64,000 nt of DNA from Klebsiella aerogenes KCTC 2190 (lineage in GTDB: Bacteria; Pseudomonadota; Gammaproteobacteria; Enterobacterales; Enterobacteriaceae), in contig NC_015663.1 of NCBI RefSeq assembly GCF_000215745.1, positions 4,340,001 through 4,404,000 of the forward strand, read 5' to 3'. Shown here piece by piece: positions 15,906 through 20,901 of this stretch. The translations under genes were made by a program, and so were the position numbers. The notes under the pieces were generated by a model. The model was not told the origin of the DNA. It searched no databases and saw only the letters and a list, made by a program, of their open reading frames with translations. Each line of letters begins with the position of its first letter. The stretch's first letter is position 1.

Positions 15906-18017
15906 TTAATTGGATTCGCCGAGGGTGATGATCCTGTCCGCGGTTTGCAGGGTCGTTTCACGGTGAGCAATAATTATTCGGGTTATATTCAACTTTTTCA
16001 TTGCCAGACTGACGTCTTTTTCACACTCTGCGTCCAGTGCGCTGGTGGCTTCATCCATGAATAATATATCCGGACGGCGATAAAGCGCCCGGGCAATAAA
16101 AATCCTCTGTTTCTGACCCCCAGATAGCCCCTCCCCCAGTTCTCCGATTAACGTCTCATACCCCATTGGCAGAGCCAATATCACGTCATGAATACGGCTT
16201 GTCCGGGCACATTCTCTCATCCAGGCATCATCAATATTTTCAGTGAATCCGCAGATATTCTCCCGAATTGAGCCAGAAAACAGCCGGTCATCCTGCATTA
16301 CGCAGGCAATCAAGCGATGATAGTTATTTATCCCCAGTTGCCTGATATCCGTACCATTCATTAAGACAGTCCCTGATATCGGTTCAGACAAGCCGCACAG
16401 TACTTTGAGCAGCGTGGTTTTCCCCGAACCTGAGGGCCCGGTAATGGCCACACTCTCGCCGGCTCGGATCCTGAAACTAAGGCCGCTAAAGACGGGTGCT
16501 GACTGGCTGTCGTAACGGAAGCTTAGCGCTTTAATCTCCAGACTAGCCGGAGACATGGTTGCCTTTAATCCTAAATCCGGTTTTCTTTCTTCCTTTTCAT
16601 TCAAAGCGATATCCGAAATCCTTTCGTTGTGCAGGCTCATCATACGCAGCTGTAATAAGAAGTTGACCAGCGATCCTACCCGGTCAGAAAACTGCGCGCG
16701 GAATGCGCCAAATGCCACAAACATGCCGATAGTCATTTGGTTCTCCATAACCAGACTGATGCCCAGCCACAGAATAGTCACCTGATCGCACGTCGCCACA
16801 AACGTGTTAATGCCGCCGAAGAACATATCAAGTCGGCTGAGTCTGATACCGGTATTGATGGCATCAATCTTCAGGTTCAGCCAGTGGCTCCCACGCCGTT
16901 CTGCCATTCCCTGCATTTTAACCGTAGCTATTCCGTAGAGTGTTTCCATAAAATATGAACCAGCACGGGCTCCGGCGATTAACGCTTCTTCCGACAGCTG
17001 GCGGTACCGGCTATAGGTCAATATACGAATGAAGACATATACCGCTGTAAAGCCCAGTACAAAAACCGTCAATTTTCCACCGTACAGGATAAGCATCAAC
17101 AAGAGACCGGCAACCATGATGCTGTCCATCATTGCCCCCACCACACAGGTTGTAAACGTGGCGCGAAGCGCATCCAACGAGCTGAAGCGGGAGTGAATAT
17201 CGCCCATCTTTCGTCGCTCAAAATAGGTCAACGGCAACTGAAGCAGATGACGGAATAGCCCCGACTGCCATTGCACATTTATCAATGACTCCATCGCAAG
17301 GGATGACCATGCGCGGATCACGCTAACCAAAGTACGCCCCAAAATAAAAAACATCAGGACTCCACAGATAAGCATGAGCAGTCCCCGGTCATTCGCAGGA
17401 ATAGCATGATCCATCACCAATTGCGTACCGACAGGCATCACCAGGCCGATAGCTTCAATAATCAGCGACAGACAGAAAATTTTGCTCAGTACGCCCCGGA
17501 TACCCTGCACGCTGCTGATTAATGCCCGAATTCCGATTCGGCTCTTCATCGTTTCCTGCACAAATGTACTGCCGGGCCAGACCTCCAGCGCCACGCCGGT
17601 GAAGCACTGTGACATTTCATCACTCCCGACAGTTCTTCGCCCCCTCGCAGGGTCATGAAGCACGAACCGATTCTTACGTACGCTAACGAGCACCACGAAA
17701 TGATTAAAATTCCAGTGCAGGATACAGGGCATTCTGAGAGCATTAAGTTCATGGAGATCCAGTGACAATGCCCGGCTTTCCATCCCTAACTCAATCCCGG
17801 TTTGCTGAACACTGGCAAGCGAGGCTCCACGGGCAGACAGATTTATTTGGCGACGTAGGGCGATCATGTCGATATTACGACCATAATGTCCGCATATCAT
17901 CGCCAGACAGGCCAGTCCACATTCTGACGTTTCTGTCTGATGAACGACCGGGACTCGCCGCCGAAATTTCAGATCCAATTTCTCCTCGATGGATGATATG
18001 AAGTGGTTACGGTTCAT
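15906..18017 (-). CDS. Microcin exporter: C39-peptidase ABC transporter (CvaB-like)
   Basis: A 703-residue peptidase-containing ABC transporter that cleaves the leader of a double-glycine peptide and exports it. N-terminal C39 peptidase: Gln27, Cys33 (QTETSECGLACLAM), His106 (HWNFNHFVVL) and Asp122 (LHDPARG) form the catalytic set. Six membrane helices span about 165-460. The nucleotide-binding domain has Walker A GPSGSGKTT (527-535), signature LSGGQ (631-635), Walker B ILFMDE (651-656) and H-loop His685, all intact. Length and sequence are close to CvaB of the colicin V plasmid and MceG of microcin E492. The start overlaps the CvaA-like gene by 11 bp. It would work with that protein and TolC. 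Confidence 0.95.
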   Translation of the reverse strand: MNRNHFISSIEEKLDLKFRRRVPVVHQTETSECGLACLAMICGHYGRNIDMIALRRQINLSARGASLASVQQTGIELGMESRALSLDLHELNALRMPCILHWNFNHFVVLVSVRKNRFVLHDPARGRRTVGSDEMSQCFTGVALEVWPGSTFVQETMKSRIGIRALISSVQGIRGVLSKIFCLSLIIEAIGLVMPVGTQLVMDHAIPANDRGLLMLICGVLMFFILGRTLVSVIRAWSSLAMESLINVQWQSGLFRHLLQLPLTYFERRKMGDIHSRFSSLDALRATFTTCVVGAMMDSIMVAGLLLMLILYGGKLTVFVLGFTAVYVFIRILTYSRYRQLSEEALIAGARAGSYFMETLYGIATVKMQGMAERRGSHWLNLKIDAINTGIRLSRLDMFFGGINTFVATCDQVTILWLGISLVMENQMTIGMFVAFGAFRAQFSDRVGSLVNFLLQLRMMSLHNERISDIALNEKEERKPDLGLKATMSPASLEIKALSFRYDSQSAPVFSGLSFRIRAGESVAITGPSGSGKTTLLKVLCGLSEPISGTVLMNGTDIRQLGINNYHRLIACVMQDDRLFSGSIRENICGFTENIDDAWMRECARTSRIHDVILALPMGYETLIGELGEGLSGGQKQRIFIARALYRRPDILFMDEATSALDAECEKDVSLAMKKLNITRIIIAHRETTLQTADRIITLGESN

Positions 18018-19284
18018 GAATCGGCCCCGTAACGCTGCGCTTCATATCGTAGAATGGCGAGAGCATCCACTGATAGATTTTACGTTTTTCCAGAAATAAC
18101 GTGCTCTGTGCCTTCATGCCATTTTCCAGAGGCAGACGCTTGCCGGCGTAGCTGACAGCCTGCTTTTCTGGACTAATCACAACTTTGTAGTAAGCAGCCG
18201 CACCTGCCGTAGAGTTAATCGGGGCGGTCGTATAGGTCTGCATTTCACGGTAGGAAGCTGGCGTCCGGGAAATGAGTGTGACTTTCGCCGAGAACTGACC
18301 AAACTTTTCAGCCGGAAAGGCTTCGTAGCGGATATTCACCCTATCACCGACTGAAATATATGGAACGGCTTCATTGGGTACCCAAAGAACCAAATAATAG
18401 CGTTGTATTTTTTCTGGAATTATCTGCAGCAGACTGTCGCCTTCGCTGACCATCTGACCTGGGGTGACGCTTAATGAATCAATTTTGCCGTCTGATGAGG
18501 CACGAATGATAATATCGCCTCCCGCATCAGTATTAATCCGCTCTTTCTGTAGCTCATAACGCTGCAGTTCCATCTGATAAACCCGATTGTCAAATTCCGC
18601 CGCCTGCGTCTGAATTTGACTTTCCAGATTGGTTAACTGTAGAGCATTTTGTTCATGCTGCGCGCTCAGGCTGAGCAAACTATTATGCTGCTGGTAGTAC
18701 AAGGCCACCAGACTGGTTAACTGGTCCTTATTAATCAACCCCTGCTGCTGGTACCGTCGGTAATTATCCATATTATTTTTCATTAATTTTATTCCCTCCT
18801 CAGCACGCCTGACAATGCCTGCCGAGCGTTCAAAAGAGGCGCTATACTGTATTTTCTGTTGCTCAAGCATCCGCAAAGTGGTTTCCTTACTCTCTCTAAG
18901 GCGAGCGATAATCTCGGCGATGCGCTTCAATTGGTTTTCGATATCCTGTCGTTGAGTCTCATTGACCACGCCTCTACGTGTACTTTTACTGACATCAATT
19001 TGATAAACAGGATCACCCTTTTTTACAGGGTCCCCTTCCCGGACGAACTGTGTCGCGACAAATCCCTGGACACCGGAATAGACATTAACCGGTCTCGGCC
19101 AGGTGGTAACTTCACCTTGCACGCTAATACGTCGTGTATAAGTGCCGGTGCTAATTAAAACAATGAAGCAGACGAAAAAAAGCGCGCTGGTAATTATAAC
19201 CAGCCGAGAGGAGATTCCCGGTAGTAATACTGCTTTGCCACACCATGTTTTATCCCTGTTTTCGAGCGCTTCCTTACGAAACAT
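18007..19284 (-). CDS. Microcin export membrane fusion protein (CvaA/HlyD family)
   Basis: A 425-residue periplasmic adaptor with a short cytoplasmic N-terminus, one membrane segment (about residues 28-48), biotinyl-lipoyl half-motifs flanking a long coiled coil (about 110-240) and a C-terminal beta domain. It is recognisably CvaA: the opening MFRKEALENRDK, the segment GEVTTWPRPVNVYSGVQGFV and the ending KIYQWMLSPFYDMKRS have direct counterparts in CvaA as I remember it. It links the inner-membrane ABC exporter to TolC. The gene starts 18 bp after the CPBP gene stop, and its stop overlaps the exporter start, so the three are one operon. Confidence 0.95.
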   Translation of the reverse strand: MFRKEALENRDKTWCGKAVLLPGISSRLVIITSALFFVCFIVLISTGTYTRRISVQGEVTTWPRPVNVYSGVQGFVATQFVREGDPVKKGDPVYQIDVSKSTRRGVVNETQRQDIENQLKRIAEIIARLRESKETTLRMLEQQKIQYSASFERSAGIVRRAEEGIKLMKNNMDNYRRYQQQGLINKDQLTSLVALYYQQHNSLLSLSAQHEQNALQLTNLESQIQTQAAEFDNRVYQMELQRYELQKERINTDAGGDIIIRASSDGKIDSLSVTPGQMVSEGDSLLQIIPEKIQRYYLVLWVPNEAVPYISVGDRVNIRYEAFPAEKFGQFSAKVTLISRTPASYREMQTYTTAPINSTAGAAAYYKVVISPEKQAVSYAGKRLPLENGMKAQSTLFLEKRKIYQWMLSPFYDMKRSVTGPIHEP

Positions 19285-19302
19285 ATTTCATTCCCGCTAT
19301 AG

Positions 19303-20496: not shown

Positions 20497-20700
20497 CTTT
20501 CATATTCCTTATGTAATTCAATAGCCAAAAATAAGCATTGCTCAGAAAATATATACATCCAATGGCAAACACAGACAGTAGTGCTCTGGGTGCCAATAAA
20601 ATATCTGCATAATCAACAAAACATCGCACAACGAGAAAACAGAATATAAGACAGAAAAGAGAATGCTCCCGGCAAGGATAATATCTTTAAACACCCGCAT
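20477..20700 (-). pseudogene. Cvi-like microcin immunity gene with an apparent single-base frameshift
   Basis: Just upstream of, and overlapping, the microcin start there is a 224-bp stretch whose two frames join to one plausible protein. The first frame starts at an ATG at 20700 (MRVFKDIILAGSILFSVLYS) and by itself ends after 52 residues; the second runs from about 20629 to a TAA at 20477 (CFVDYADILLAPRA, then AIGCIYFLSNAYF). Adding one base in the T4 run (complement of 20636-20639) gives a 74-residue, two-helix membrane protein similar in size and pattern to Cvi (78 residues), and Cvi also lies next to CvaC. Either the gene is broken, the base is a sequencing error, or a shorter GTG-started 50-residue form at 20629 is made. 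Confidence 0.55.
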
Positions 20701-20849
20701 TATGATTTACCCTGCAGATTTTCCTCCCCGCATTTCATGCCAGCAGGATGGAATTTCGGCATGATTTTTAAATTTTTAAGCTATGGGTTGATAATTATTC
20801 CTCAGGCCGCAATCCATTTTCTATTCATCCCTGTATTATTCCTAATGCA

Positions 20850-20901
20850 AGGTTACATTAATATGACCAGATGTCAATGAATGATATTCATTCTCATTAT
20901 C
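20850..20901 (-). promoter_or_regulatory. Fur box and promoter of the immunity-microcin genes
   Basis: On the minus strand GATAATGAGAATGAATATC (20901-20883) matches 16 of 19 positions of the classic Fur box. A perfect -35 TTGACA follows at 20877-20872, with a TAACCT -10 candidate 16 bp further on (20855-20850). Iron-repressed expression is expected, as for ColV. The 150-bp leader down to the immunity ATG shows no convincing gene. Confidence 0.75.

What the first reader, a model, noticed from the sequence alone, without database searches (positions are those of the whole stretch)
15906..20901. Chromosomal microcin V-type bacteriocin locus
Seen: a Fur-box promoter, an immunity-like frame, a 105-residue double-glycine precursor, a CPBP protease, a CvaA-like adaptor and a CvaB-like C39 ABC exporter, all on one strand. 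Known: ColV (cvaABC-cvi) is classically plasmid-borne in E. coli, with cvaAB and cvi-cvaC on opposite strands, and microcin E492 of Klebsiella carries siderophore-modification genes. Inference: this is a distinct ColV-like class IIa arrangement with MceF-type protease and no mceCDIJ-like modification genes, so the peptide is likely unmodified.
Basis: partly seen in the sequence, partly recalled or inferred. Interest (0 to 1): 0.92.

Follow-up and report, generated by a model that had tools for sequence, protein, structure and literature searches.

The report
Klebsiella microcin V operon, immunity split
A Klebsiella aerogenes chromosome carries a gene set for making and exporting a small protein that should kill related bacteria, a close cousin of the well-known colicin V; it is a known kind of weapon, but its usual self-protection gene looks broken in this strain.

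Summary
The finding is real. Window 15906-20901 holds a one-strand microcin V operon on a chromosome matching K. aerogenes KCTC 2190 in length: a Fur-box-like site, a 105-residue precursor of the Pfam MccV family (181.6 bits, cut-off 27; 61% identical to ColV), a CPBP protease, a HlyD adaptor and a C39 ABC exporter with its catalytic residues. No precursor match in 19 of 19 other same-genus genomes. Novelty is limited: a microcin V cluster was reported in silico for strain LU2, with KCTC 2190 a 99.44% match (PMC7005296); the gene order recurs on an Enterobacter plasmid and equals that of the published MccS operon, whose CAAX-family gene is the proven immunity gene (PMC3316575). The receptor-binding tail keeps 22 of 32 MccV residues, including the key Asp. 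Likely an unmodified, Cir-dependent class IIa microcin that depolarises membranes. Open question: what protects the producer?

The parts
15906..18017 (-). C39 peptidase-ABC exporter, CvaB-like, 703 aa
   Evidence: Pfam C39, ABC membrane and ABC_tran; 70% identical to ColV CvaB, 77% to the E. hormaechei plasmid homologue; Cys33, His106, Asp122 align with CvaB Cys32, His105, Asp121; Walker A and LSGGQ present
18007..19284 (-). HlyD/CvaA-like periplasmic adaptor, 425 aa
   Evidence: Pfam HlyD_3; 68% identical to the ColV adaptor
19303..20001 (-). CPBP intramembrane protease, 232 aa, related to the CPBP of an E. coli H47 cluster
   Evidence: Pfam Rce1-like 66.0 bits, cut-off 22.4; EExxxR, FxxxH and HxxxN motifs; 50% identical over 222 aa to L070:18198-18884
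20179..20496 (-). microcin V family precursor, 105 aa
   Evidence: Pfam MccV 181.6 bits over 1-104 of 104; 61% identical to ColV; pN/pS 0.17 against the E. hormaechei homologue
20452..20496 (-). double-glycine leader MKELTNKQLGMVSGA, 15 residues, predicted cut after Gly-Ala
   Evidence: sequence; aligned with ColV; GG or GA both known at the site (PMC9746304 passage)
20182..20451 (-). predicted mature peptide, 90 aa, about 9.0 kDa, Cys78 and Cys89, no Ser-rich tail
   Evidence: computed; residues 74-104 of the precursor match MccV in PDB 9nn6 chain B, E 4.3e-11
20542..20700 (-). N-terminal piece of a Cvi-like immunity gene; 52-aa frame, of which the first 29 residues match relatives
   Evidence: 29 of 29 residues identical to P0036; similar to the E. 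hormaechei Cvi-like frame
20477..20629 (-). C-terminal piece of the same immunity gene in another frame; overlaps the precursor start by 20 bases, as cvi-cvaC do by 23 in ColV
   Evidence: 35 of 37 aligned residues identical to P0036; 96% to P0035; ColV cvi 4787-5023 and cvaC from 5001 in L004
20877..20901 (.). Fur-box-like site (two overlapping 19-mers, 15/19 and 14/19)
   Evidence: the ColV region has 17/19 matches, but the E. hormaechei relative has none of 13/19 or more between its upstream gene and its Cvi-like frame
20872..20877 (-). TTGACA, possible -35 element next to the Fur box; no convincing -10
   Evidence: read by eye; not among the hits of the promoter scan, so inference only

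Best explanation
This is a chromosomal microcin V family operon of K. aerogenes. Low iron lifts Fur repression at a site upstream of a Cvi-like gene (inferred). One transcript then reads through the precursor, CPBP, adaptor and exporter genes (inferred). The C39 domain cuts the 15-residue leader after Gly-Ala, and the ABC-HlyD pair with TolC exports an unmodified peptide of about 90 residues with one C-terminal disulfide (inferred from family and conserved residues). The C-terminal 32 residues would bind the siderophore receptor Cir on related bacteria; TonB-driven uptake would let the N-terminal part depolarise the inner membrane, as MccV does through SdaC (by family). In the KCTC 2190 sequence the Cvi-like immunity gene is split over two frames. 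Most likely this is a sequencing error or a recent lesion in an otherwise maintained locus; the CPBP may add self-protection, as McsI does for MccS.
For: Family: MccV 181.6 bits, 61% identity to ColV. Exporter and adaptor 70% and 68% identical to their ColV counterparts, catalytic residues conserved. Constraint against the E. hormaechei operon: pN/pS 0.17-0.26 in 4 of 4 genes, with synonymous sites near or at saturation. Receptor tail: 22 of 32 residues identical; MccV Asp85, which sits in the Cir arginine pocket (PMC12511343 passages), is conserved as Asp102 of the precursor. Own CirA present: 1395.1 bits, cut-off 745; Cir Arg116, Arg436 and Arg490 are conserved in it, counted by hand on the alignment. 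No modification genes in the window. Flanks adjacent without the locus in one congener. A one-frame Cvi-like relative (P0036, 7 member sequences) exists.
Against: No transcription or activity data. MccV Glu61, a predicted minor Cir contact, is Ala here. With CirA present and its immunity gene split, the strain as sequenced might be suicidal if it made active peptide. A K. aerogenes precursor with a frame change exists (P0005), so the locus may be decaying in some strains. No -10 element found for the TTGACA, and the Fur-box-like site is not conserved upstream of the E. hormaechei relative.
Confidence: 0.78

Rival explanations
1. The CPBP protein, not the Cvi-like protein, is the working immunity protein. 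It stands where mcsI stands in the MccS operon, so the Cvi-like gene can decay without killing the producer.
For: Same gene order as mcsS-mcsI-mcsA-mcsB, where the CAAX-family gene mcsI was shown to confer immunity (PMC3316575 passages). CPBP motifs intact and constrained. Of 19 named genome loci with CPBP relatives, 14 show no match to the window's exporter or adaptor at E 1e-4 and 2 only weak 27-28% ABC matches, as orphan immunity genes would; flanks are cut short in L078 and L090.
Against: ColV itself has no CPBP in the stretch seen (one search finds none in L004). For mcmM no evidence of a need in MccM/H47 immunity was found, and MceF is said to regulate E492 immunity negatively (PMC6795089 passage). 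McsI itself could not be compared (searches found no record).
Confidence: 0.25
2. The locus is a decaying remnant in KCTC 2190: immunity is truly broken and the peptide is no longer made or exported.
For: Immunity frame split; frame-changed precursor in another K. aerogenes record (P0005); run of seven G in the precursor at 20445-20451, a possible slippage site.
Against: Precursor, CPBP, adaptor and exporter frames are intact with the motifs examined; 78 member sequences stand behind the 98% identical precursor cluster P0001 and 168 behind the 96% identical CPBP P0011.
Confidence: 0.22
3. The split is only a sequencing error in the KCTC 2190 record; immunity is an ordinary Cvi-type protein.
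For: P0036 shares the first 29 residues and nearly all of the second piece in a single frame; the E. hormaechei relative is a single frame.
Against: P0035, a partial protein from another K. aerogenes record, begins in a frame different from P0036 (frames compared by eye), which hints at a second disrupted copy.
Confidence: 0.45
4. A siderophore-modified class IIb microcin.
For: A CPBP of this type sits in an E. coli H47 (class IIb) cluster (PMC6795089 passage).
Against: E492 model 14.0 bits, cut-off 50; no hit of the H47 cluster's modification genes in the window; no Ser-rich tail, ends in ICY. The rest of the genome was not searched for such genes.
Confidence: 0.02

Closest known systems
Microcin V (colicin V), cvi-cvaC / cvaA-cvaB
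   Same: Homologous precursor (61%), adaptor (68%), exporter (70%), Cvi-type gene upstream and overlapping the precursor start, Fur-box-like site
   Different: One strand instead of two; CPBP gene added; chromosomal; immunity split; GA instead of GG cleavage site
E. hormaechei plasmid NZ_CP132233.1 'colicin V family bacteriocin' locus
   Same: Same gene order and strand; precursor 83%, CPBP 65%, HlyD 74%, ABC 77% identical; single Cvi-like frame upstream
   Different: Plasmid; no Fur-box-like match of 13/19 or more just upstream; a second MccV-like precursor with another C-terminus sits downstream in the opposite direction
Microcin S operon mcsS-mcsI-mcsA-mcsB (pSYM1)
   Same: Order precursor, CAAX family, HlyD, ABC (PMC3316575 passages)
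   Different: No Cvi-like gene mentioned in the passages seen; sequences not compared (record not held)
K. aerogenes LU2 'microcin V' cluster found with BAGEL4
   Same: Very probably the same locus; KCTC 2190 named as a 99.44% match (PMC7005296 section 12)
   Different: Reported as a prediction; the section read describes no gene order, CPBP or immunity defect
Microcins E492 / M / H47 (class IIb)
   Same: Related CPBP, C39 exporter and adaptor
   Different: No modification genes in the window, no Ser-rich tail

Membership tests
Microcin V family (Pfam PF17508) | precursor over the family cut-off, full length | tested here: met
   181.6 bits, cut-off 27, positions 1-104 of 104
Class IIa microcin | double-glycine leader and C39 exporter with Cys/His/Asp, plus HlyD adaptor | tested here: met
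Class IIa microcin | adjacent dedicated immunity gene | tested here: inconclusive
   Cvi-like gene present but split over two frames; CPBP is a second candidate
Class IIa microcin | no siderophore-modification genes or Ser-rich tail | tested here: met
   (window only, not the rest of the genome)
Microcin V | Cir used as receptor | not testable with these tools
   22 of 32 receptor-domain residues and Asp85 conserved; binding not tested
Microcin V | SdaC as inner-membrane target; TolC for export | not tested
   from literature only (PMC12511343 passages, for SdaC; PMC6795089 passage, for TolC); genes not searched in G000
Microcin V | iron/Fur-controlled promoter before cvi | tested here: inconclusive
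   15/19 Fur-box match; promoter scan did not return the TTGACA element; site not seen in the E. hormaechei relative
Class IIb microcin | E492-group precursor | tested here: not met
   14.0 bits, cut-off 50
Microcin S type operon | order precursor-CAAX-HlyD-ABC on one strand | tested here: met
   against the published order
Microcin S type operon | CAAX-family protein confers immunity | not testable with these tools
   needs an assay

The most novel reading that the evidence does not exclude
A microcin V lineage that acquired an intramembrane protease of the MceF/McsI kind and is shifting self-protection from the small Cvi-type membrane protein to that protease, so that the Cvi-like gene is now free to decay in K. 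aerogenes while the toxin stays active.
Probability: 0.17. Interest if true: 0.55.

Novelty: new member of a known kind. Interest (0 to 1): 0.32.

Why it matters
It is a natural MccV homologue outside E. coli with conserved Cir-contact residues. It offers a clean test of what CPBP proteases do in microcin clusters (immunity, regulation or processing), since what is reported for mceF, mcmM and mcsI differs (PMC6795089 passage; PMC3316575 passages). If the split immunity gene is real, this strain poses a direct self-killing puzzle.

Tried and rejected
Tried without result: the search for related loci with the precursor alignment in genome contigs (160 pattern matches, none confirmed). The E492 family search in 20 same-genus genomes rang nowhere, the 14 controls included, so it shows nothing. 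Terminal repeats at the insertion ends: no shared 9-mers, direct or inverted, between 15740-15939 and 20840-21239. The 10-bp inverted repeat between precursor and CPBP was rejected as a terminator because no T run follows; overall fold z -1.46, 12 of 200 shuffles as good.

Considered and rejected: class IIb (see rivals); a programmed frameshift in the immunity gene (P0036 encodes it in one frame; no search for a slippery motif was run); chance ORFs (family scores far over cut-offs). The 'colicin V production protein & bacteriocin production cluster' that PMC3771936 lists for KCTC 2190 is marked present in 8 of 8 strains compared, so I take it for the housekeeping cvpA region, not this locus (passages; cvpA recalled). 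Rows left out: of the 10 precursor relatives, 8 went into alignment A1 (P0005 and P0010, frame-changed or short, were left out); of the 24 CPBP relatives, 11 went into A2.
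Full report
Identity of the window. G000 is a single contig of 5,280,350 bases. PMC7005296 gives exactly this size for Enterobacter (Klebsiella) aerogenes KCTC 2190 (table passage), so I take the window to be from that strain.

What is there. On the minus strand: a 105-residue precursor (20179-20496), a 232-residue CPBP protease (19303-20001), a 425-residue HlyD adaptor (18007-19284) and a 703-residue C39-ABC exporter (15906-18017). Pfam assigns MccV at 181.6 bits (cut-off 27), Rce1-like, HlyD_3, C39, ABC membrane and ABC_tran. 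The exporter keeps the Cys, His and Asp that PMC9746304 lists as needed for cleavage (passage), at 33, 106 and 122. The CPBP keeps EExxxR, FxxxH and HxxxN (motif meaning recalled). The Fur-box-like site matches 15 of 19 letters on the plus strand; 3 of 500 shuffles of the intergenic region reach that. Against it: the E. hormaechei relative shows no match of 13 or more between its upstream gene and its Cvi-like frame, while the ColV region has 17/19 matches.

Immunity. In ColV, cvi overlaps cvaC by 23 bases. Here the frame that overlaps the precursor by 20 bases, 20477-20629, carries only the C-terminal part of a Cvi-like protein and has no ATG, GTG or TTG upstream of its GTG. The N-terminal part lies in another frame, 20542-20700, which starts with ATG and runs into a stop. 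P0036 (73 aa, 7 member sequences, source tag 'lgn') has the first 29 residues of piece 1 identically and 35 of 37 aligned residues of piece 2 in one frame. The E. hormaechei plasmid has an 82-residue frame, not in the annotation table shown, related both to P0036 (52% over 64) and to Cvi (28% over 74, E 2e-10). So a Cvi-type gene is probably the ancestral state and the KCTC 2190 record shows it split. P0035, a partial protein of another K. aerogenes record, holds piece 2 at 96% but starts in yet another frame, by eye; as a partial record it cannot be judged. I did not read the gene through for any search or fold, nor propose a mend.

Distribution. Precursor: 1 of 20 same-genus genomes, only its own (Pfam model); 2 of 392 family genomes by sequence (own and G043, 43% over residues 28-105); 2 of 394 order genomes by the Pfam model (own and G176, below cut-off). 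Plasmids: 393 records match the precursor, 382 of them at 60-80% identity (those listed next after the best are ColV at 60.6%); the best is 83%, E. hormaechei NZ_CP132233.1. With the 4,895-base operon as query, 1 of 743 matching plasmid records covers 80% or more, again NZ_CP132233.1. In E. coli, 692 of 5,426 genomes match the precursor-CPBP-adaptor stretch, none over 80% of it; the 15 records listed of 740 are adaptor/exporter matches of mchF or cvaB loci. Proteins: 10 relatives in the big database, among them P0001 (98%, 78 members). PMC9746304 reports microcin hits in nearly 100% of K. aerogenes assemblies (passage), without saying in the parts seen which microcin.

Insertion. In congener G001 the endonuclease-side flank ends at 2,666,308 and the GAPDH-side flank starts at 2,666,471, same strand, 162 bases apart. 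In the window the same two points, 15749 and 21226, have 5,476 bases between them. This pairing is seen in 1 of 19 congeners: 4 others have an endonuclease match elsewhere in the genome, and 14 show no such match. The direction, gain here rather than loss in G001, is therefore inferred, helped by GC of 47.5% at 15906-20700 against 57.2% outside and by absence of the precursor in 19 of 19 congeners. No terminal repeats were found.

CPBP. It is 50% identical over 222 residues to the CPBP of an E. coli chromosomal H47 cluster. That protein has the length (228) which PMC6795089 gives for McmM, described there as similar to MceF (passage), so I take it for McmM. Among 19 named genome loci with relatives, 3 of 19 have a close C39 exporter match beside the CPBP (L082, partial; L088; L089), 2 more (L072, L087) only weak 27-28% ABC matches, and 0 of 19 a MccV match at E 1e-4; flanks are cut short in L078, L088 and L090. 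Role: open. McsI, a CAAX-family protein in the same operon position, is a shown immunity protein (PMC3316575 passages); for McmM no evidence of a need in immunity was found, and MceF is described as a negative regulator of immunity (PMC6795089 passage).

Receptor. The MccV receptor domain solved with Cir (PDB 9nn6 chain B) matches precursor residues 74-104 at E 4.3e-11. 22 of 32 residues are identical; Asp85 is kept and Glu61 is Ala. The genome's own CirA is clear (1395.1 bits, cut-off 745), and the three Cir arginines around Asp85 named in PMC12511343 (passages) are kept, by hand count on the alignment. The producer should therefore be a target of its own peptide unless something protects it; its SdaC was not examined.

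Modularity. P0007, P0009 and the second E. hormaechei precursor P0039 share the N-terminal part to SPSGLGG and differ after it; the G043 precursor matches the Pfam model only over 40-104. This fits the published view in which the last 32 residues of MccV give Cir specificity (PMC12511343 passage).

Print. PMC7005296 section 12 (read whole; other passages) reports a BAGEL4 microcin V cluster in strain LU2, with KCTC 2190 at 99.44%. My searches for K. aerogenes with microcin, colicin V and bacteriocin and for KCTC 2190 with colicin V listed four different papers. In section 12 and passages of PMC7005296 and passages of PMC3771936 I saw no experimental test and no gene order; PMC8277102 and PMC6251167 were seen as listings only. 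Subscription papers are not held. Verdict: a real, ordinary member of the microcin V family in an MccS-like operon layout, with an immunity defect worth checking.

Noticed in passing
L066:5888-9906 (G043 chromosome); L068:4321-10510 (G176 chromosome); L091:5998-7751 (Pantoea agglomerans plasmid); L092:1846-3629 (Photobacterium damselae plasmid); L093:5281-7116 (Edwardsiella tarda plasmid): A recurrent cassette in 5 of 5 Gram-negative loci looked at: a SunS-like family-2 glycosyltransferase (NCBIfam SunS 142.2 and 176.5 bits for the two scored, below the 350 cut-off; the others are tblastn relatives of the first) beside a protein of about 120 residues (40-56% identical pairwise among four; annotated 'nitrogen fixation protein NifS' in two; matched in two segments in G176). 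In G043, Pantoea and Edwardsiella a small double-glycine-like precursor with a shared Cys-Ser-x-Pro-x-x-Phe-Tyr stretch lies beside it. HlyD or C39 exporter genes lie within the fetched stretch in four of five (not seen in G043; read by eye in G176). It looks like a family of glycosylated class II microcins in Gram-negatives; paper searches listed 2 and 1 papers, seen as listings only.
   Followed up: partly
L066:7394-7711: The G043 precursor seems to join the N-terminal module of that cassette to the MccV-type Cir-binding C-terminus (Pfam MccV 50.9 bits over positions 40-104 only) and lies next to a TonB receptor gene (NF010012, 1004.5 bits, cut-off 924).
   Followed up: partly
L002:13739-14062: Second MccV-like precursor on the E. 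hormaechei plasmid, opposite strand, same N-terminal module with a different C-terminus; the Cvi-like immunity frame of this locus is not in the annotation table shown.
   Followed up: partly
window 20445-20451: Run of seven G just after the predicted cleavage site in the precursor gene, not present in the E. hormaechei homologue. P0005 from K. aerogenes has a frame change in this part of the peptide, so the run may be a slippage hot spot.
   Followed up: no
window 20087-20115: Perfect 10-bp inverted repeat (loop 9) between precursor and CPBP genes without a T run; could be an attenuator or processing site.
   Followed up: no
L068:4321-6428: The C39-ABC exporter of the G176 microcin locus is split into two overlapping frames.
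   Followed up: no
L072-L081, L083-L087, L090: CPBP relatives of 40-55% identity stand without a close C39 exporter or any MccV match in the fetched flanks in these 16 of 19 named genome loci, 10 of the 16 Citrobacter (L078 and L090 have short flanks); possible orphan immunity genes.
   Followed up: partly
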